Positions 1-6,761 of a stretch of 6,761 nucleotides of DNA are shown here, in pieces. The notes below the pieces were generated by a model that ran no database searches, was not told the origin of the DNA, and saw only the letters and a program-made list of their open reading frames with translations. Position 1 is the stretch's first letter; each line of letters opens with the position of its first letter. Source of the DNA: Caldifarciminota bacterium (GTDB taxonomy: Bacteria; WOR-3; Hydrothermia; WGAB01); assembly GCA_015489295.1 (NCBI GenBank), contig WGAB01000119.1:1-6761 (forward strand), given 5' to 3'. Position numbers and translations under genes: made by a program.

Positions 1-1191
1 GGTGTACACCGTACCGTCCAGGAAGATGCCGGCCACGCTGTCGGTGTCCGCGCGTTCCACGACGGCAAAAGAAAGGGACCCGTGGACCAGGCGCAGGCCC
101 AGCCAGGCGTTCTGGGTGTCGGCGCAGGTGAACCGGATGGTGTCGGTGGCCGTGCCGTTGGCGGAAATCGTGGAGACCTCCAGGCCGTAGCCGCTGGCCA
201 CCTGCACCTCCACGCCGGGATCCACCGCGAGGAAGTTGTAGCGGTACCAGGTGTTGAAGCCCCCCTCCAGGCTGTCCATGCGGTAGGGCAGGCCCAGGTT
301 GTACAGATGCTCTGAGGTCGCCAGAGTATAGGGACCCAAGATGCGGATCAGGTTGTGGGTGTTGCCCGAGGTGGGCACGTCGGTGTAGGCGGTATCCAGC
401 TGGGCCACGGGATGCAAAGCCAGGGGATAGGAGCACCCGGTGATGACATTGGTATTTGTGAGTCGGACCACCTGGTTCTGGTACAGCCGGAGGGCGCCGT
501 AGTCGGAGGTGATGCCCTGGAACAGATTGTTGGCGATGAAGAGGGTGTCGCACTGTTCCGCATCCACGCCGGGATGGGAAAGGCCCACGAACTCGTTGTC
601 GGCAATGTGGAGATAGCCCATGTACAGGGCCCGCAGGCCCCCGCTGCCCAGGAACCGGTTGCCCTGGATCACCACCGAGTCCATGTCCTCCAGGTACAGG
701 CCCCGGGAGCTGTTGCGGAACACCGAGTGGCGGACCTCTGCGTTGTCCAGGGCTACCGGGCCTCCGGTATCATCCTCAAACACGCAATACTCAAAGAAAC
801 TGGTGCGTTTCTGGGTTCGGTCGGGCCAGTAGTTGTTCAGGACGATGCCGTTCCAGGCGGCGTGGTTCCATCCCCGGAACACGATGGAATCGGTGCTCGT
901 GCCGATGGCCACCACTGCGGCCAGGGTATCCACGAAAACCGAGGAGAGCCCGAGATACGCCCCCTCCTCAAATTCCACGATGCAGCCGGGTTCCAGGGTA
1001 AGGGTGGCGTCGCCGGTAAGTTCCACATATCCCAGGATCCGGTGGGGGCTGTCGGCCGCCCGCCACACGGTATCCGTGGAAATCACTTCGTGGTCATGGT
1101 AGGTTTGAGCAAAGGCTGCACCGAAGAGGATGAGGAAGAGGGGGGAAACCCATATCCTTCGGCAGGCCCTCCATAGAGTCCTGCCCCGCAC
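1..1191 (-). CDS. Exported right-handed beta-helix repeat protein, 3' part beyond the window
   Basis: The minus strand is open without a stop from 1212 to base 1, so the C-terminus lies outside the window. I start it at GTG 1191, where a near-perfect Shine-Dalgarno AAGGAGGT (1198-1205) sits 6 nt upstream. An ATG at 1212 with a weaker AGGAG would add 7 residues. From GTG, 397 residues are visible. They begin with a typical signal peptide: basic stretch, hydrophobic SPLFLILFGAAFA, likely cleavage after AFA (about residue 28). Residues ~60-230 show parallel beta-helix coils (NRFLGS, NEFVGL, NNLFQG; Asn ladders and short hydrophobic strands), as in NosD/pectate-lyase-like folds. The pattern 'PG-x-x-V ... 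DSIVF/DTIRF ... WxGI/WLGL' appears near residues 70-125 and again near 325-375, suggesting two tandem helix modules. I see no catalytic residues that define an enzyme. A surface or secreted structural, adhesive or carbohydrate-binding role is inferred. It is transcribed away from the lasso operon and is probably unrelated to it. Confidence 0.85.
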   Translation of the reverse strand, partial: MRGRTLWRACRRIWVSPLFLILFGAAFAQTYHDHEVISTDTVWRAADSPHRILGYVELTGDATLTLEPGCIVEFEEGAYLGLSSVFVDTLAAVVAIGTSTDSIVFRGWNHAAWNGIVLNNYWPDRTQKRTSFFEYCVFEDDTGGPVALDNAEVRHSVFRNSSRGLYLEDMDSVVIQGNRFLGSGGLRALYMGYLHIADNEFVGLSHPGVDAEQCDTLFIANNLFQGITSDYGALRLYQNQVVRLTNTNVITGCSYPLALHPVAQLDTAYTDVPTSGNTHNLIRILGPYTLATSEHLYNLGLPYRMDSLEGGFNTWYRYNFLAVDPGVEVQVASGYGLEVSTISANGTATDTIRFTCADTQNAWLGLRLVHGSLSFAVVERADTDSVAGIFLDGTVYT

Positions 1192-1233
1192 ATCCCGACC
1201 TCCTTCCCTCATGATCGGACTCCTGTTCCTGCA

Positions 1234-1248
1234 CCCCTATCATAGGGG
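1234..1248. promoter_or_regulatory. Perfect 15-bp palindrome over the -10 box (possible operator)
   Basis: CCCCTAT-c-ATAGGGG is a perfect inverted repeat with 7-bp arms and one central base. It covers the candidate -10 of the beta-helix gene, where a bound dimeric regulator would block RNA polymerase. The one-base centre makes an RNA hairpin unlikely, so a DNA-level site fits better. No regulator gene is visible in the window. Confidence 0.35.
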
Positions 1249-1268
1249 CGAGAAAAGGGAGCATGCAA
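1239..1268 (-). promoter_or_regulatory. Candidate sigma70-type promoter of the beta-helix gene
   Basis: Read on the minus strand, TTGCAT (1268-1263) and TATGAT (1244-1239) are separated by 18 nt. The -10 differs from TATAAT at one base; the -35 keeps only TTG plus weak similarity. Transcription would begin near 1232, about 20 nt before ATG 1212 and 40 nt before GTG 1191. The -10 lies inside the palindrome at 1234-1248. Position and -10 quality support it; the -35 is weak. Confidence 0.45.
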
Positions 1269-1646
1269 GCCGCGCGCTTACAGAAACCGGCAAAGGTTTT
1301 GATGCTTTAGCAAATTCCCAAAGAAAGCCATTCTGTAGGGAAAGCCAGGGCCCAGAACCTTAAAAGAGGTGCCCTTCGCAATTTTTCGGCCAGTTCCGGT
1401 CCCCTCCGTGGGAAGGATGCCTCTGGGTCGCTCCGATTCCCCCGGCGCGATCTTCCTTCGGGTGTGCAGGGCAGGGGCATGGGGGCACAGATCAGGGTAT
1501 CATAGGCCTCAAGAGGGTCCTCAGCCCCGCAGGGGGCAGGGATTGGCAGACAAGACCTTGGCATAGGTTTGTAACCCCCCAAGTCGTCTCCTCCACCGTC
1601 AACAGTCCTCGAACTCCGAAACACCCCCGGGAGGGATTCTGCCGTG

Positions 1647-1667
1647 GGAGCGGCTTCAGCCGCGACA
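1647..1667 (+). repeat. REP-like palindromic element, copy 1
   Basis: GGAGCGGCTTCAGCCGCGAC plus one further base is identical to 1740-1760. The core GCGGCT-tc-AGCCGC is a 6-bp inverted repeat. The form, a short palindrome with an asymmetric GGAG head, resembles the REP elements mobilised by RAYT (TnpA-REP) enzymes in other bacteria. That link is by resemblance only, since no RAYT gene is present here. Confidence 0.65.
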
Positions 1668-1677
1668 ATCCAATCAT

Positions 1678-1711
1678 CCCCGCCCCCGGCGGGCGGGGAC
1701 TGAGGGGCGGG
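1678..1711 (+). repeat. G-rich hairpin repeat unit A
   Basis: CCCCGCCC (1678-1685) pairs with GGGCGGGG (1691-1698). Then comes actga and a third G-rich arm GGGGCGGG (1704-1711), which could compete for the same C-rich strand. The same layout (hairpin, A[C/T]TGAGG, G-rich arm) recurs at 1803-1834 and, inverted, at 1976-2008 with different stem bases, so it is a dispersed repeat family rather than chance GC-rich sequence. Confidence 0.55.
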
Positions 1712-1734
1712 GGTGCAGCCCGCAGGGCTGCACC
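1712..1734. repeat. Perfect 10-bp-stem hairpin between the two REP-like copies
   Basis: GGTGCAGCCC (1712-1721) and GGGCTGCACC (1725-1734) are perfect complements around a GCA loop. No T-run follows, so it is not a standard intrinsic terminator. It sits directly after hairpin unit A and just before the second REP-like copy, as part of a dense palindrome cluster. Confidence 0.6.
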
Positions 1735-1739
1735 ATGTA

Positions 1740-1760
1740 GGAGCGGCTTCAGCCGCGACA
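1740..1760 (+). repeat. REP-like palindromic element, copy 2
   Basis: This is an exact 21-base match to the copy at 1647-1667, in the same orientation and 93 bp downstream. It is preceded by TGTA, giving the extended head GTAGGAGCGGC. Together the two copies bracket hairpin unit A and the 10-bp-stem hairpin. Confidence 0.65.
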
Positions 1761-1802
1761 TCAGAATGGTCCTCGTTCCTGGCGAGCCCGACAGCAAATC
1801 GT

Positions 1803-2008
1803 CCCCTCCCTTTGGGAGGGGATTGAGGGGAGGGCATTTTGGAGTGCGGCACCTGGGTGCCGCTCTGGAGTTCCGGCGTGGAGCCTTGCAGTGCTGTTTA
1901 GACGGGAGCCGTGCCCTTTGTGAACGGGGAACCTCCGGTTTTCAAAGCGGTGCCGAGGCACCGCACTCCAAGAACACCCCCACCTCAATCCTCCCCCTGA
2001 GGGGGAGG
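1803..2008. repeat. Composite inverted repeat of about 206 bp (MITE- or REPIN-like)
   Basis: Left arm 1803-1863 and right arm 1947-2008 are imperfect inverted copies around an 83-bp centre. Each arm has an outer G-rich hairpin (CCCCTCCC-ttt-GGGAGGGG on the left; CCTCCCCC-tga-GGGGGAGG on the right), then ATTGAGG read inward, then an inner hairpin headed GGAGTGCGG. The inner stems are GCGGCACC/GGTGCCGC (1846-1863) and GCGGTGCC/GGCACCGC (1947-1964), so base changes on one side are matched on the other. No open frame of note lies inside. The build suggests a non-autonomous mobile repeat or paired REP elements. No target-site duplication was identified. Confidence 0.6.
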
Positions 2009-2032
2009 AAGTTATTGAACCGCAAGGGGTTA
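1995..2032 (+). repeat. 38-bp direct repeat, copy 1
   Basis: This begins in the right outer hairpin of the composite repeat (CCCTGAGGGGGAGG) and continues through AAGTTATTG, GCAAGG and TTA. It matches 2046-2083 at 32 of 38 positions by eye, with a 51-bp offset. Confidence 0.6.
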
Positions 2033-2045
2033 GCGTAAATCTGTA

Positions 2046-2083
2046 CCCTCAGGGGGAGGAAGTTATTGGGCGGCAAGGACTTA
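2046..2083 (+). repeat. 38-bp direct repeat, copy 2
   Basis: This is the second copy of the 1995-2032 unit, starting CCCTCAGGGGGAGG and sharing AAGTTATTG, GCAAGG and the final TTA. It lacks the left half of the hairpin, so it looks like a truncated or partially duplicated end of the composite element next door. Confidence 0.55.
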
Positions 2084-2116
2084 TCGGGAATCCTGCCCGA
2101 GAGAATATGGCGAAAT

Positions 2117-2137
2117 CGCTGCTGAAGCGGCTCCTAC
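2117..2137 (-). repeat. Degenerate REP-like element, copy 3, inverted
   Basis: Read on the minus strand this gives GTAGGAGCCGCTTCAGC followed by AGCG. Compared with the extended head of copy 2 it differs at two of 21 positions, both within the palindrome, which weakens the stem. It appears to be an older inverted copy about 90 bp upstream of the lasso promoter. Confidence 0.45.
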
Positions 2138-2226
2138 CGGGCTGGCCACTGCTGCTGAGGTGGCTTCGACCGCGTCCTGATGCCTTTTCCGGTCTGCACC
2201 TGGATGGCTACAGGGACTATGTCAAG

Positions 2227-2255
2227 TTTACATTCCCCTACGCCCCCAATATAAT
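2227..2255 (+). promoter_or_regulatory. Strong sigma70-type promoter of the lasso operon
   Basis: TTTACA (2227-2232) matches the -35 consensus at 5 of 6 bases. TATAAT (2250-2255) is a perfect -10, and the spacer is exactly 17 nt. Transcription would start near 2262, giving a leader of about 57 nt before the precursor ATG at 2319. The leader may form a small CCGGA/TCCGG hairpin (2273-2288). A consensus promoter directly before a small precursor gene fits high expression of the peptide. Confidence 0.85.
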
Positions 2256-2318
2256 TCATCGCCACCACTCGACCGGAAGGGGATCCGGGAGGGCCAACCA
2301 AAAGAGGAGGTATCGGCT

Positions 2319-2483
2319 ATGAGGAAAAGGGTGCGGAAACAAGATCCCGGATTCCAGGCCGGGGAGGAAAACCGGAAGCCCTATCGCCCTCCGCGGGTGG
2401 AGACCCTGGGGCGCCTCCGGGACCTGACTCGTGGAGCCCATGTGGGCGGTCTCTTGGACGTGGGTTCCTCGAGCGCCTATTAG
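2319..2483 (+). CDS. Lasso peptide precursor (class II-type, predicted Gly1-Asp9 ring)
   Basis: This 54-residue ORF starts at ATG 2319 behind an excellent ribosome site (GAGGAGG, 2304-2310, 8 nt spacing). The basic N-terminus leads into YRPPRVETLGRLRDLT (residues 22-37), which fits the lasso leader signature Y-x2-P-x-[L/V]-x3-G-x5-T, the element bound by the RiPP recognition protein. Thr37 is at -2 of the expected cleavage after Arg38, as in microcin J25 (LTK before its Gly1). The predicted core, residues 39-54, is GAHVGGLLDVGSSSAY. Gly1 supplies the amine, and Asp9 is the only acidic residue, giving an unambiguous 9-membered ring with tail VGSSSAY. It has no cysteine, so it would be class II. 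The unmodified lasso should have a monoisotopic neutral mass of about 1470.71 Da, calculated here from the composition. Its promoter lies just upstream and an export gene follows. Product identity is a confident family call; activity and actual maturation are unknown. Confidence 0.92.
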   Translation: MRKRVRKQDPGFQAGEENRKPYRPPRVETLGRLRDLTRGAHVGGLLDVGSSSAY

Positions 2484-2563: not shown

Positions 2564-3706
2564 TTGGCGTCCCCATTGTCCTGTTGGGCCCTGCTGGACT
2601 CCTGGATCCGATCCCGTCAAAAGGAGAGGGATCGTCTGGTATTCTGGGCCCAGGACCATCGAGTGGTGCCCCTGGTATACCGCAGGGTTCGGGAGAAATT
2701 TCCCCACCTGGAGCCCCTGCTCCGCCCCCTTGCCCACCGACAACAACTCCTTGCGATCCACGGAACCCGGCAACTCCTGAACCTGATCCAAGCGTTTCAA
2801 GAAGCCGGCATTCGGGTTTTGCCTCTGAAGGGACCGGTGCTGTCTTACCAACTCTGGCAGGATGTGGGTCTCCGGGCTTTCGTGGATTTGGACCTCCTGG
2901 TTCACCCTTCGGATCTCCGCAGGAGCTGGACCGTTCTGGAACACCTGGGATATACTCTGACCGACCCTCCTCTCCAGGGGCTTCCCGCCCATCTTCAGAC
3001 CCGCATCCTCCGCAGGACCCATCACAGTGTATGGCGTTCTCCGGATCCGACGCAGCTTCCGGTGGAACTCCACTGGCACCCTGTAGACCCCCGCTGGCCT
3101 GTCCGCCTGAGCTCAGATATGCTCCTGAGCCGTTCCCAGCGCCTCAGGCTTCTGGGACGGGAGATCGAAACCCTCCATCCCGCGGATCTCCTGATATATC
3201 TTGCCCTTCATGGTACCAAGCACCAGTGGAACCGGCTTCTGTGGCTCTGCGATTTCTTTCAGGCTTGGCATCGGTGGAGGCACTGGATCAATCCCGAAGA
3301 ACTTCGGATGTATGCCCGGGAGACGAGAACCCTCAAGCCCTTGTTGCTGGGGTTTGCACTCATCGACCGGATGGCGTCGCAACCGCTCCCAAAGGGTATT
3401 CGACAGGATCTACAGCAATTTCCAGAACTCCGGTGGTTCGCCCGAGAACATCTGGAGAGCCTGCTCCAGGGTACGAGGGGGCCGTCCGGGACCCTTCGGC
3501 GGATCGTTTACGAAGCCCGAATGATGGGGGCTGGAACACACGGGTTTCTGGTCCACGCCCTTCGTCTTCTTGTGCAACGTTTCTTTGTCCCCACCCTGGC
3601 CGATTTCTATGCCCTTTCGCTCCCCTCGCGATGGACTGTTCTTTACTACCCCTTTCGGCCCTTCCGCTGGTTAACCCAGCGGTTCTTGGCACGCTTAAGC
3701 CAATGA
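2564..3706 (+). CDS. Nucleotidyltransferase family protein (PF14907-type), lasso-operon associated
   Basis: This 380-residue protein has the layout of the uncharacterised nucleotidyltransferase family with a Pol-beta-like fold. Near residues 82-113 it reads IRVLPLKGPVLSYQLW ... RAFVDLDLLVHP. Lys89-Gly90 form the turn, and Asp108 and Asp110 are the metal-binding D-x-D pair. The rest is Arg/Trp/Leu-rich and helical, as usual for the family. The start is TTG 2564, with a G-rich AAAGGGGGG stretch 3 nt before it. The frame is open upstream to 2498 but offers no ATG or GTG, so the true start is uncertain. It follows the lasso precursor by 80 nt with no convincing terminator and overlaps the ABC gene by ATGA (translational coupling). 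Relatives occur in lasso clusters such as the paeninodin type, where their job is unproven. Nucleotidylation of the Ser/Tyr tail or of a partner protein is only inference. Confidence 0.85.
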   Translation: MASPLSCWALLDSWIRSRQKERDRLVFWAQDHRVVPLVYRRVREKFPHLEPLLRPLAHRQQLLAIHGTRQLLNLIQAFQEAGIRVLPLKGPVLSYQLWQDVGLRAFVDLDLLVHPSDLRRSWTVLEHLGYTLTDPPLQGLPAHLQTRILRRTHHSVWRSPDPTQLPVELHWHPVDPRWPVRLSSDMLLSRSQRLRLLGREIETLHPADLLIYLALHGTKHQWNRLLWLCDFFQAWHRWRHWINPEELRMYARETRTLKPLLLGFALIDRMASQPLPKGIRQDLQQFPELRWFAREHLESLLQGTRGPSGTLRRIVYEARMMGAGTHGFLVHALRLLVQRFFVPTLADFYALSLPSRWTVLYYPFRPFRWLTQRFLARLSQ

Positions 3707-5526
3707 AGAGCGGGGAGATAAAAGCCCTGCATCTCGCCGTTGCGCACCTGAAGCGCTACCGACCCTTGGTCCTTGCGAACCTGGTGCTGTTAATCCTCCT
3801 GTCAGCCACCGAGGTGGTTGGCGTTGGAATGGTAATCCCCCTTTTGCAAAGTTTCACCCAGGACCAGCGACCGTTGCCGCTGATGCAAGGCTTCCACCGC
3901 CTGTTTGCCCTCCTTCATCTGGAGGTCAACCTCTGGACCGTGCTGGGAGCCTTTAGCGTGGTGGTGGCGCTCCGCTATCTGCTTCAGGCCGTGCAGCAGT
4001 ATTTGGCCCGTCTTCTGAGCAGCCGTGTGACCCGGGATCTGCGGCAGCGCCTGTATGAGAAATTGCTGACCCTGCCCCTGTCCTTCTATGTCCGCAGGAG
4101 AACCGGTGAACTCCTGGCCATCGTGGAACGGTCCACCGTCAAGGCAGGCCTGGCCCTGGAGATCCTGGTGTTGACTCTGGCTTCTGCTACCATCACCCTG
4201 GGCTTGGCGGCCCTGAGCCTTGCCCTTTCCGTGCCCCTGACCCTCGGGGTGGGAGGCCTGCTGGGCGGCATCTACCTTCTGGTGGTCCCCCGAATTCGGG
4301 CAGCCTTCGAAGGCGGACAGGAGGCCAGGGATGTCGAAGAGCGGCTCACCGGATGGCTCGTGGAAACCTTAGAGGCCTTAAAGCTCGTCAAGGCCATGAA
4401 CCGGGAGGACCTGCACCGCGCCCGGTTCGATGCCCTGAACCGACAGGCCTATGAATTGCATCTTCGGCTTCAGCGGAACCGGGTGACGGCACAATTGCTG
4501 ACCGAACCCCTGGTGTTCCTCCTGGCCCTGGGACTGGTTGCCCTTTCCGTGGGCGTGTTTCGGCAACCCCTGGCCGTAGTGGTCACCTTCTTCTTTATCC
4601 TGTTCCGAATCTTGCCCCGATTTCGGCACATCAGCCACAACTATGTCCTAATTTCCGAATTCCTGCCCCATTTTGCCCGCATTGAGGAGGTGCTGCAGGT
4701 CACGGAGCCAAGGCCCCCTTCGGGTCCCCGGCCCATCCGGCACCTTAGACGGGGGGTGGTGTTCGACCGGGTACACTTTCGGTATCCCGGTACGAGCGAG
4801 GAGGTGCTGAAGGGTGTGAGCTTCCGGATTCCTCGAGGTTCGATGATTGCGCTATTCGGCCCCTCGGGGGAAGGCAAGACCACCGTGGTGGATCTCCTGC
4901 TCCGATTTTACGATCCGACCCGTGGGCGGATCCTGGTGGACGGTAAAGATCTCCGGGAGTTCCGGATTGAGGACTGGCGAAACCTGATCGGCCTGGTGCC
5001 CCAAGAGGGATTCGTGTTCCACGATACCGTGTGGAACAATCTGCGGTACGGCAACCCAGAGGCTACCGACGAGGCGGTCCTTCGCGCCGCCCAGCTTGCC
5101 GGAGCCCATGAGTTCCTTCAGCGTCTTCCCCAGGGGTACGATACCGTACTGGGGGAACGCGGGGTGATCCTTTCGGGAGGGCAGAAACAACGCCTGGCCC
5201 TGGCCCGGGCCCTGGTCCGGAACCCCGAGATTTTGATTTTGGACGAGGCCACCAGCGCTTTGGATAGCGAGGCAGAGGCCGCCGTTAAAGAGGTGGTGGC
5301 CCGCCTCCGTGGAAAGAAAACGATTCTGGTCATCGCCCACCGGTTTTCCACCATCGTGGACGCCGATGAGATCGTGGTACTCTTGCAGGGGCGGGTTGTC
5401 GACCGGGGAACTCATCGAGAGCTCCTGGAACGTAACGAAGTGTATCGCCGGAACTACGAACTTCAGGTGCAGCAGACCCTGGCCGAAGGGCCCCCGGGTG
5501 TGTACAATCCAGAACTGGAGACCTGA
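3703..5526 (+). CDS. ABC exporter with fused membrane and ATPase domains, probable lasso exporter
   Basis: This 607-residue half-transporter has an N-terminal exporter-type membrane domain (hydrophobic segments near residues 22-48, 77-95, 153-195 and 268-304) and a C-terminal ATPase. ATPase motifs are complete: A-loop Tyr361, Walker A GPSGEGKT (386-393), Q-loop Gln434, signature LSGGQ (490-494), Walker B ILILDE (510-515, catalytic Glu515), D-loop SALD and H-loop His546. It should work as a homodimer in the cytoplasmic membrane. The ATG at 3703 overlaps the upstream TGA (ATGA) and has little Shine-Dalgarno of its own, so it is probably translated by coupling. The same frame is open upstream of 3703, but that part is low-complexity Pro/Ser/Gly and overlaps the nucleotidyltransferase, so I exclude it. 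Being in a lasso operon, it fits the McjD-type exporter/immunity role. A lipid or MsbA-like role cannot be excluded from sequence. Confidence 0.92.
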   Translation: MKSGEIKALHLAVAHLKRYRPLVLANLVLLILLSATEVVGVGMVIPLLQSFTQDQRPLPLMQGFHRLFALLHLEVNLWTVLGAFSVVVALRYLLQAVQQYLARLLSSRVTRDLRQRLYEKLLTLPLSFYVRRRTGELLAIVERSTVKAGLALEILVLTLASATITLGLAALSLALSVPLTLGVGGLLGGIYLLVVPRIRAAFEGGQEARDVEERLTGWLVETLEALKLVKAMNREDLHRARFDALNRQAYELHLRLQRNRVTAQLLTEPLVFLLALGLVALSVGVFRQPLAVVVTFFFILFRILPRFRHISHNYVLISEFLPHFARIEEVLQVTEPRPPSGPRPIRHLRRGVVFDRVHFRYPGTSEEVLKGVSFRIPRGSMIALFGPSGEGKTTVVDLLLRFYDPTRGRILVDGKDLREFRIEDWRNLIGLVPQEGFVFHDTVWNNLRYGNPEATDEAVLRAAQLAGAHEFLQRLPQGYDTVLGERGVILSGGQKQRLALARALVRNPEILILDEATSALDSEAEAAVKEVVARLRGKKTILVIAHRFSTIVDADEIVVLLQGRVVDRGTHRELLERNEVYRRNYELQVQQTLAEGPPGVYNPELET

Positions 5527-5529
5527 ACC

Positions 5530-6471
5530 ATGTGGGGAGTCTTTCTGATCCTGGCCTTAGGGATAGGCGATCCGCCACCAAGCCAGCCCCTGCCCGATAC
5601 CCTGAAGGCCCGGCTGGAGGAGTTGTACAAGACGGCCAAGAAGTGGGGGGTGGGGGAGAACCGCGAGAAGGTGCCGGAGGCCCGCAGGCAACTGGCGGCC
5701 TACGGCGAGGCCACGCTCCAGTTCCTGTTTGCCGAAAAGGTTCGTACCCTCAACGCCCTGGAACTCCGGGTGTTCAAGTTCGTGGTCCAGCGGAACCGCC
5801 AGCGGGCCCTGCCCTATTTGCACCAGGCCTTAGAGAGCGAGAACGATACCGTGCGCCGGGTGGCCCTTTGGCTCGTAGGCGAGGTCAAGGATTCCTCGGC
5901 CCTGCCGAAACTCCAGGAGATGCTGGCCACCGAAAAACGCCCCCGCATGCGTGCCCGGGTGCTGGGCGCCCTGGGCAAGATCGGGGATACCACCGCCGCC
6001 TCGTGGGTGGCGCCGTATCTCCAGGACACGTCCCGCTTTGTCCGCTACGCCGCGGCCTCGGCCCTGGTGAAACTCCACCAGCCCCGCTGGGTTCCTGTGT
6101 ACCTGACCCTGCTCCGGGACCCGGATTTCCAGTTGCACCAGGCCGGCCTGGCGGGCCTGGCCCGGGAACCGGCGGTGGCCCTGGACTCTCTGGAGACGCG
6201 GTGGCGCGAGGAGGTTCGGCCGCGCGACCTGCAGGCCCTGGCCCGGGTGCTGGCCTCCCCGGATCTGCACCTCACCGACCGACAACGCCGGGCCTGGCGC
6301 GCCCGACTGGTGCCCCTGCAGCACCATCCGGACCCGGCGGTTCGGCTCTATGACGCCAAGGCGTTAAGGAGTTTAGGTGGCAAGTCGCTAAAGCCCCTGA
6401 TGCAGGCCTGGATGGACCGGGAAACCGACCCCATGGTGTGGAACACCCTTCGCCAGATCCTGCAGGAATGA
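5530..6471 (+). CDS. HEAT-repeat protein, probably exported
   Basis: This 313-residue protein starts at ATG 5530, 3 nt after the ABC stop, with GGAG (5517-5520) as ribosome site. A short hydrophobic N-terminus (MWGVFLILALGIG) looks like a minimal signal peptide or anchor, followed by a Pro-rich linker. From about residue 93 it is built of helical pairs of HEAT/PBS-lyase type: roughly 93-120, 124-153, 155-185, 188-212, 260-285 and 287-312. Typical phrases are DTVRRVALWLVGEV, RMRARVLGALGKIGD and RFVRYAAASALVKL. The middle (213-258) is less regular. Such folds bind proteins and carry no enzymatic residues, so a scaffold or binding role is inferred. Its tight spacing makes it the last gene of the lasso operon, but HEAT proteins are not known lasso components, so the link could be positional only. 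It is Arg-rich, like its neighbours, and shows no frameshift. Confidence 0.85.
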   Translation: MWGVFLILALGIGDPPPSQPLPDTLKARLEELYKTAKKWGVGENREKVPEARRQLAAYGEATLQFLFAEKVRTLNALELRVFKFVVQRNRQRALPYLHQALESENDTVRRVALWLVGEVKDSSALPKLQEMLATEKRPRMRARVLGALGKIGDTTAASWVAPYLQDTSRFVRYAAASALVKLHQPRWVPVYLTLLRDPDFQLHQAGLAGLAREPAVALDSLETRWREEVRPRDLQALARVLASPDLHLTDRQRRAWRARLVPLQHHPDPAVRLYDAKALRSLGGKSLKPLMQAWMDRETDPMVWNTLRQILQE

Positions 6472-6516: not shown

Positions 6517-6761
6517 TTACCCCTGGGTACCAGGCTGGCCGGTTTCAAACCGCCGGAGATCCTCCTCGCGGCCCATGACCACCAGGATGTCGCCCTCCCG
6601 GATCACCTCCTGGGGGCCGGGATTGAACACCATCTCTCCATTGGCCCGTTTGATGGCGATCACGATCACGCCGTAATGGTTCCGCACATCGGCCTCGGCC
6701 AGGGTGCGGTTCACCACCGGCGAAGAGCGGGTGACCCGGATCTCCTCCAGTTGCAGGGGCA
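6517..6761 (-). CDS. Potassium channel/transport protein, C-terminal RCK (TrkA-C) domain, 5' part beyond the window
   Basis: This is the C-terminal end of a minus-strand gene whose start lies beyond the right edge. The stop is TAA at 6519-6517, and 80 codons are visible. The sequence follows the RCK_C (TrkA-C) pattern: LEEIRVTRSSPVVNRTLAEA, then YGVIVIAIKR, then FNPGPQEVIREGDILVVMGR, ending in EEDLRRFE. This domain dimerises and binds ligands that gate K+ channels or Trk/Ktr transporters. Ending soon after RCK_C fits both channel proteins with an RCK_N-RCK_C tail and stand-alone TrkA/KtrA subunits, and the visible part cannot separate them. A GTG at 6717 falls within the domain and is not the true start. 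It converges on the HEAT gene with 45 nt between the two stops and no clear terminator hairpin. Confidence 0.88.
   Translation of the reverse strand, partial: PLQLEEIRVTRSSPVVNRTLAEADVRNHYGVIVIAIKRANGEMVFNPGPQEVIREGDILVVMGREEDLRRFETGQPGTQG

What the first reader, a model, noticed from the sequence alone, without database searches (positions are those of the whole stretch)
2319..2483. Unannotated-size lasso peptide precursor with core GAHVGGLLDVGSSSAY
A 54-codon gene carries the full lasso leader signature (Y22, P25, V27, G31, T37), Thr at -2, Gly1 and a single acidic residue at core position 9. It is easily missed because it is short. I do not recognise the core as a characterised lasso peptide. 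The small-residue-rich tail (VGSSSAY) has only its terminal Tyr as an obvious plug.
Basis: partly seen in the sequence, partly recalled or inferred. Interest (0 to 1): 0.9.

Follow-up and report, generated by a model that had tools for sequence, protein, structure and literature searches.

The report
New WOR-3 lasso peptide precursor
This is a short gene for the raw material of a knotted "lasso" peptide in what appears to be an uncultured bacterium of candidate phylum WOR-3; its kind is known, but the peptide looks new, and its few relatives keep the handling tag while the active part changes.

Summary
The 54-codon gene at 2319-2483 reads as a lasso peptide precursor: leader motif, Thr at -2, Gly1, Asp9, core GAHVGGLLDVGSSSAY (lasso [M+H]+ 1471.718). 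A WOR-3 MAG (L001/G001) has the same block A-N-D-HEAT with a divergent lasso-type cyclase directly upstream of A. The four aligned precursors, the window's included, keep Gly1 and an acidic residue 9. Two share an identical 42-residue leader but differ at 5 of 16 core residues.

In the window, A, an NTP_transf_5 gene (N) and an ABC exporter (D) stand without a recognisable B or C. A has a sigma-70-like promoter at nearly the same distance from the ATG as in L001. A-N-D is far more diverged from the MAG (dS about 1.0-1.6; 0.8 in the short core) than the beta-helix and HEAT flanks (0.2-0.3), which suggests cassette exchange. Repeats lie at the upstream junction, so an assembly chimera is not excluded. 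The window's own genome is not held, so B and C could not be sought there.

Verdict: a sound new member of a known kind, with interesting side observations.

The parts
2227..2255 (+). promoter-like site of A (TTTACA, 17 nt, TATAAT); second hexamer ends 63 nt before the ATG
   Evidence: equivalent site TTGACA-17-TAAAAT 64 nt before the ATG in L001
2305..2310 (+). Shine-Dalgarno AGGAGG, 8 nt before the ATG
   Evidence: same spacing in L001
2319..2483 (+). lasso precursor gene A, 54 aa
2319..2432 (+). leader, 38 aa, with YRPPRV...G...TR
   Evidence: invariant columns
2433..2480 (+). core GAHVGGLLDVGSSSAY, predicted Gly1-Asp9 ring
2564..3706 (+). N: NTP_transf_5 (PF14907) protein with a polymerase-beta-type nucleotidyltransferase fold; start codon uncertain (TTG at 2564 used here; P0001, 347 aa, starts later)
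3703..5526 (+). D: ABC exporter (membrane plus ATPase domains)
   Evidence: PF00664, PF00005; a 75% identical protein at the same place in L001
1432..2160 (.). stretch without a recognised gene at the upstream junction, repeat-rich; the part tested (from 1980 on) recurs widely in the related MAG up to about 2174

Best explanation
2319-2483 encodes a lasso peptide precursor of a bacterium close to a WOR-3 (Caldifarciminota) MAG. It is transcribed from its own promoter as the first gene of an A-N-D unit. A B system (leader-binding domain plus protease) would recognise the YxxPxV...T leader and cut after Arg38. An Asn-synthetase-like cyclase C would activate Asp9 with ATP and join it to Gly1, closing a 9-residue ring round the tail VGSSSAY, with Tyr16 as the likely plug. 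N would decorate a hydroxyl of the tail (Ser12-14 or Tyr16) and D would export the product. B and C are not on this contig; they lie elsewhere in the genome (or next to A after all, if the contig is misjoined: rival 1, which overlaps with this reading). Shown: the gene, the conserved leader and core pattern, N and D downstream, and C beside A in the relative. Inferred: maturation, threading, the site and kind of N's modification, export, and the place of B and C.
For: Leader and core pattern as described. Relative L001 has C-A-N-D-HEAT in a row. C keeps SGGVDS in 9 of 9 aligned sequences and has no Cys at residue 2 in 9 of 9; for L001 and P0071 its best NCBIfam match is the lasso cyclase NF033535, though at only 41 bits against a cut-off of 525. 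Its only solved relatives at E <= 0.01 are CarA, AsnB and beta-lactam synthetase, ATP-driven amide-forming enzymes (recalled). In a third source, C (P0072) and N (P0003) both show a contig of 24,057 nt, which suggests linkage. N models at mean pLDDT 90.1 with a nucleotidyltransferase fold and keeps D108, D110 and an acid at 168 in 18 of 18. The promoter lies 63 and 64 nt before the ATG in the two loci.
Against: No C in the window by tblastn with the relative's cyclase (best E 0.62, scattered pieces) and no B or C family match in its ORFs upstream of A. No B found in MAG G001: no PqqD match at E <= 0.001, no NF033537 match, only a weak PF13471 match below cut-off inside a longer transglutaminase-like protein. 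The leader model is missed by 0.7 bit. C scores far below the lasso cyclase cut-off, and for P0072 the best NCBIfam match is asparagine synthase (46.0 bits), with the lasso cyclase fifth at 32.0. The tail has little bulk to hold a threaded fold. Only 1 of 147 phylum genomes has this cyclase (the second match, G129, begins like an ordinary asparagine synthase).
Confidence: 0.75

Rival explanations
1. The contig is an assembly chimera: A-N-D-HEAT was joined to the beta-helix gene through dispersed repeats, and in the real genome C (and B) lie upstream of A as in L001. The lasso peptide is still real, but the split arrangement is not. (Overlaps with the best explanation on the peptide itself.)
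For: A query of window 1980-2330 matches at 43 places in G001 (40 of 64 candidates scored). In G001 the beta-helix gene is on another contig, beside a gene that I take by eye for lysine 2,3-aminomutase. A second sharp junction at 6544/6545 joins a stretch 99.5% identical to G001:C94, although the beta-helix flank is about 93% identical in DNA.
Against: Of the stretch from 2175 to the ATG nothing aligns in G001. By tblastn the window does not encode a cyclase end there, and the stretch carries the promoter at nearly the same distance as in L001, so C does not abut A there as it does in L001.
Confidence: 0.3
2. The cassette is a remnant: B and C were lost, and A-N-D is a decaying or purely exporting unit.
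For: No B or C recognised in the window. P0193 sits on a 20,461-nt contig, a length that appears in 0 of the 70 N hits and 0 of the 120 listed of 226 C hits.
Against: A, N and D are intact open frames. dN is well below dS between window and L001: dN/dS 0.17 for the leader, 0.35 for the 16-codon core, 0.26 for N, 0.16 for D. Promoter, Shine-Dalgarno and the core's key residues are kept.
Confidence: 0.12
3. Not a lasso precursor: a chance small ORF or another kind of peptide.
For: Leader model just below its cut-off; C far below the lasso cyclase cut-off, and asparagine synthase is the best match of one C relative.
Against: Three relatives with conserved leader and core pattern, an Asn-synthetase-like gene next to one of them, N and D downstream, and a pattern-scan expectation of 0.002.
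Confidence: 0.03

Closest known systems
Lasso peptide clusters with an N gene, e.g. pseudomycoidin (psm) of Bacillus pseudomycoides (PMC9266682, passages read) and bsf of Bradymonas sediminis (PMC10368454, passages read)
   Same: Short precursor with the YxxP leader motif at -17/-14, an annotated nucleotidyltransferase (N) gene, and a D gene in bsf; an Asn-synthetase-like cyclase in the relative L001.
   Different: In psm the N gene acts with a kinase on a phosphorylated C-terminal Ser; here the core ends in Tyr (Leu in P0193) and no kinase family was matched among the window proteins scanned or the L001/L041 genes scanned (4 downstream genes; the rest were read by eye only). B and C are not beside A in the window. 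Leader -2 is Thr, not Ile as in BsfA.
NCBIfam NF033521 lasso_leader_L3 precursors
   Same: Leader residues 22-39 align to profile positions 1-18 of 20.
   Different: 18.3 bits against a cut-off of 19.
Precursor of MAG G001 (L001:1777-1953) and P0191
   Same: Same leader block, Gly1, V4-G5-G6, D9, G11, S14-A15-Y16.
   Different: 9 of 16 core residues shared with L001; in L001 C lies directly upstream of A.
Polymerase-beta-type nucleotidyltransferases: MenT1, ANT(2'')-Ia, LnuA; more weakly FKRP

Membership tests
Lasso peptide (precursor A) | Leader with YxxP motif and Thr(-2) | tested here: met
   Y22, P25, G31, T37; conserved in 4 of 4 precursors aligned. That these mark the class is from PMC10368454 passages and recall.
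Lasso peptide (precursor A) | Core residue 1 (mostly Gly) and Asp or Glu at 7-9 | tested here: met
   Gly1 and Asp9; D, D, E at position 9 in the three relatives
Lasso peptide (precursor A) | Curated leader model NF033521 above cut-off | tested here: inconclusive
   18.3 of 19 bits; P0193 24.6, P0191 17.5, P0194 no match. A score threshold rather than a defining trait.
Lasso peptide cluster | Cyclase C (Asn-synthetase homologue) in the genome | tested here: inconclusive
   Not found in the window; present next to A in L001; own genome not held
Lasso peptide cluster | B or B1+B2 (leader-binding domain and protease) in the genome | tested here: inconclusive
   None matched in the window; none found in MAG G001, whose lasso contig begins inside C; own genome not held
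Lasso peptide | Threaded Gly1-Asp9 macrolactam | not testable with these tools
   needs the molecule (MS/MS, NMR)
PF14907 NTP_transf_5 (N) | Pfam match above cut-off and conserved acid triad | tested here: met
   151.7 bits against 31.2; D108, D110, E/D168 in 18 of 18
PsmN-like pathway (hexose on a phosphorylated C-terminal Ser) | C-terminal Ser as acceptor | tested here: not met
   The core ends in Tyr
PsmN-like pathway (hexose on a phosphorylated C-terminal Ser) | Partner kinase gene | tested here: inconclusive
   No kinase among the window proteins scanned; the genome is not held

The most novel reading that the evidence does not exclude
In this family the precursor travels with N and D as an exchangeable cassette with its own promoter, apart from B and C, which serve changing cores in trans. 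N builds the stopper: it attaches a nucleotide (or sugar phosphate) to the terminal Tyr or a tail Ser after threading, so that a tail of small residues is locked by a bulky group that is not encoded in the sequence.
Probability: 0.12. Interest if true: 0.75.

Novelty: new member of a known kind. Interest (0 to 1): 0.42.

Why it matters
It points to lasso peptides in an uncultured candidate phylum (a search of the held papers for 'lasso peptide' with 'WOR-3' gave one paper, whose shown passages report no WOR-3 lasso peptide) and gives a small natural series of four cores on one leader type. The one pair with a fixed leader and a changed core, and the diverged cassette between more conserved flanks, hint at turnover of the product. 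If N modifies a small-residue tail without a kinase partner, that would be a testable new route to a plug.

Tried and rejected
Looked for the window's own genome: not held. The first genome-contig scan with N alone found nothing; the second, with the three-sequence alignment, found L001. Searched the window for cyclase remnants: none convincing. The short reading GYRDYVKF at about 2206-2229 resembles the YRxxV end of the cyclase by eye, but it is neither collinear nor was it reported by tblastn. The tblastx listing was noise and was not used. The 14 ORFs of 30 aa or more overlapping window 1213-2318 gave no family match of note: 14 of 14 scanned in Pfam, 10 of 14 in NCBIfam. Plasmid records hold no match to the cyclase at 1e-30. 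Viral contigs gave none for C or A. The PDB sequence search gave nothing for N and only weak matches that I take for chance for A. A second precursor-like match in G001 (G001:C153, 38 aa, without a Thr-x-Gly core start) and the matches in G074, G106 and G117 (L057 and L058 read, G106 not read) were set aside as likely chance. The weak NF033537 matches in 12 of 147 genomes were all below cut-off, in open frames of 429-500 residues, and were set aside as other families without further reading. The first identity figures for A used a wrong start for L001 and were replaced. A script stopped with an error after printing the figures used; its remaining part was rerun. The HEAT gene was considered as a cluster member and set aside: G002, of the same family, has a homologue (43%) without the cyclase. 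Papers PMC12670498 and PMC13352647 were looked at in passages and not used. Paper searches.

Full report
What is there. The ORF at 2319-2483 is real and as described. It starts at ATG with AGGAGG 8 nt before it, has a 38-residue leader and a 16-residue core, and is the only ORF in six frames that fits a loose lasso pattern (0.002 expected per random sequence; the pattern is mine). The curated leader model NF033521 matches at E 0.0017, 0.7 bit under its cut-off. Downstream lie N (PF14907, 151.7 bits), D (ABC exporter) and a HEAT-repeat gene. Upstream lie about 1.1 kb in which 14 of 14 ORFs of 30 aa or more have no Pfam match of note, then a beta-helix protein gene on the other strand.

Where it comes from. 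One genome contig was found to encode a close relative of N: L001, a MAG record titled candidate division WOR-3, a name that leads to phylum Caldifarciminota in the taxonomy copy. L001 carries cyclase C (cut by the contig start), A, N, D and HEAT in that order. Protein identity to the window is 56% for N, 75% for D and 91% for HEAT; for the precursor it is 23 of 38 aligned leader residues and 9 of 16 core residues. The beta-helix protein has a 94% identical counterpart in the same MAG on another contig.

The machinery. The full-length cyclase P0071 (602 aa; the L001 copy is cut) is a diverged Asn-synthetase homologue: Pfam Asn_synthase 37.5 bits. Its best NCBIfam match is the lasso cyclase, but at 41 bits against a cut-off of 525; for the relative P0072 the best is asparagine synthase (46.0 bits), with the lasso cyclase fifth at 32.0. 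SGGVDS is kept in 9 of 9 sequences aligned and Cys2 is lacking in 9 of 9. A search gave 226 proteins at E <= 1e-10, of which 120 were listed; only the 7998 candidates sharing most words were scored. No B was found in MAG G001 with PF13471 (one weak match, below cut-off, in a longer protein), PF05402 or NF033537. As the contig begins inside C, B may lie in the missing stretch. In the phylum, 1 of 147 genomes has this cyclase; a second match at 58 bits lies in a frame that begins like an ordinary glutamine-dependent asparagine synthase. 14 of 147 have a match to the N alignment at E <= 0.001.

A changing core on a fixed leader. A profile search of the protein collection gave 4 proteins among 5 candidates: P0191, the window's own P0192, P0193 and the weak P0194. 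Cores: GAHVGGLLDVGSSSAY (window), GVNVGGFYDGGTTSAY (L001), GASVGGILDGGATSAY (P0191), GAHVGGLFEIGTYSAL (P0193). Gly1, V4, G5, G6, an acid at 9, G11, S14 and A15 hold in 4 of 4. L001 and P0191 have identical leaders (0 of 42 differ) and 5 of 16 differing core residues (Fisher p 0.00095). This is one pair, at protein level only. Against a stronger reading, dN/dS over the 16 core codons between window and L001 is below 1 (0.35), so no positive selection is shown.

A diverged cassette. Synonymous divergence between window and MAG is about 0.18 in the beta-helix gene and 0.27 in HEAT, but 1.0 in D, 1.3 in N and 1.6 in the leader; the 16-codon core gives 0.8. The last 215 bases of the window differ from the MAG at 1 position only. 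The change falls near the end of D, before HEAT. Different ages of the segments explain this better than fast protein change, since synonymous sites differ too. Exchange of the A-N-D cassette, or an old rearrangement, would do it; a chimera could account for part.

The missing C and B. In L001 the stop codon of C overlaps the -35 box of A's promoter. In the window the promoter stands at nearly the same distance (63 against 64 nt), but tblastn finds no cyclase end before it. Before that come repeats: a query of window 1980-2330 matches 43 places in G001, reaching no further than about 2174. Two further hints of A apart from C rest on contig lengths only: P0193's contig (20,461 nt) appears in 0 of 70 N hits and 0 of the 120 listed C hits, and the contig length shared by N P0003 and C P0072 (24,057 nt) appears for 0 of the 4 A hits. 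Gene calling may have missed short genes, and the lists are limited, so these are leads. The second junction at 6544/6545 adds doubt about the contig.

Novelty. The core sequence is in none of the held papers as a text string. The search 'lasso peptide' with 'WOR-3' gave one paper, whose shown passages mention antimicrobial peptide expression in WOR-3 but no WOR-3 lasso peptide. Subscription papers and databases of predicted lasso peptides are not covered. I file it as a new member of a known kind. The separation of A from C and a kinase-free N would make it a variant if confirmed.

Noticed in passing
window 6545-6761: The last 217 bases (C-terminal part of a TrkA-domain channel gene, minus strand) are 99.5% identical to G001:C94 while the beta-helix flank is about 93%; the last codons of the gene are replaced at a sharp junction. 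Rearrangement or contig chimera.
   Followed up: partly
window 1980-2174: Dispersed repeats: a query of 1980-2330 matches 43 places in MAG G001, some beside the beta-helix gene there too.
   Followed up: partly
window 5530-6471: HEAT-repeat protein gene directly after D in both loci, 91% identical, far more conserved than the lasso genes before it; a homologue exists in G002 without the cyclase.
   Followed up: partly
window 1-1212 (minus strand): Beta-helix (PF13229) protein gene cut by the window end; its G001 counterpart lies in a 1538-residue open frame with further weaker matches in the same frame.
   Followed up: no
P0194 (49 aa, 1,034-nt contig, source jgi): Another likely lasso precursor with the same RKPY..P...GRLRDLT leader and a different core (Gly1 and Glu8 if cut at the same place); context unknown; no NCBIfam match.
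   Followed up: no
P0073-P0190 (cyclase hits): A broad family of cyclase-like Asn-synthetase homologues at about 36-50% identity, a few named from Brocadiaceae, Chloroflexi, Nitrospirae and Gemmatimonadales MAGs. They may mark further lasso clusters that curated models miss; this is a guess, none was examined in context.
   Followed up: no
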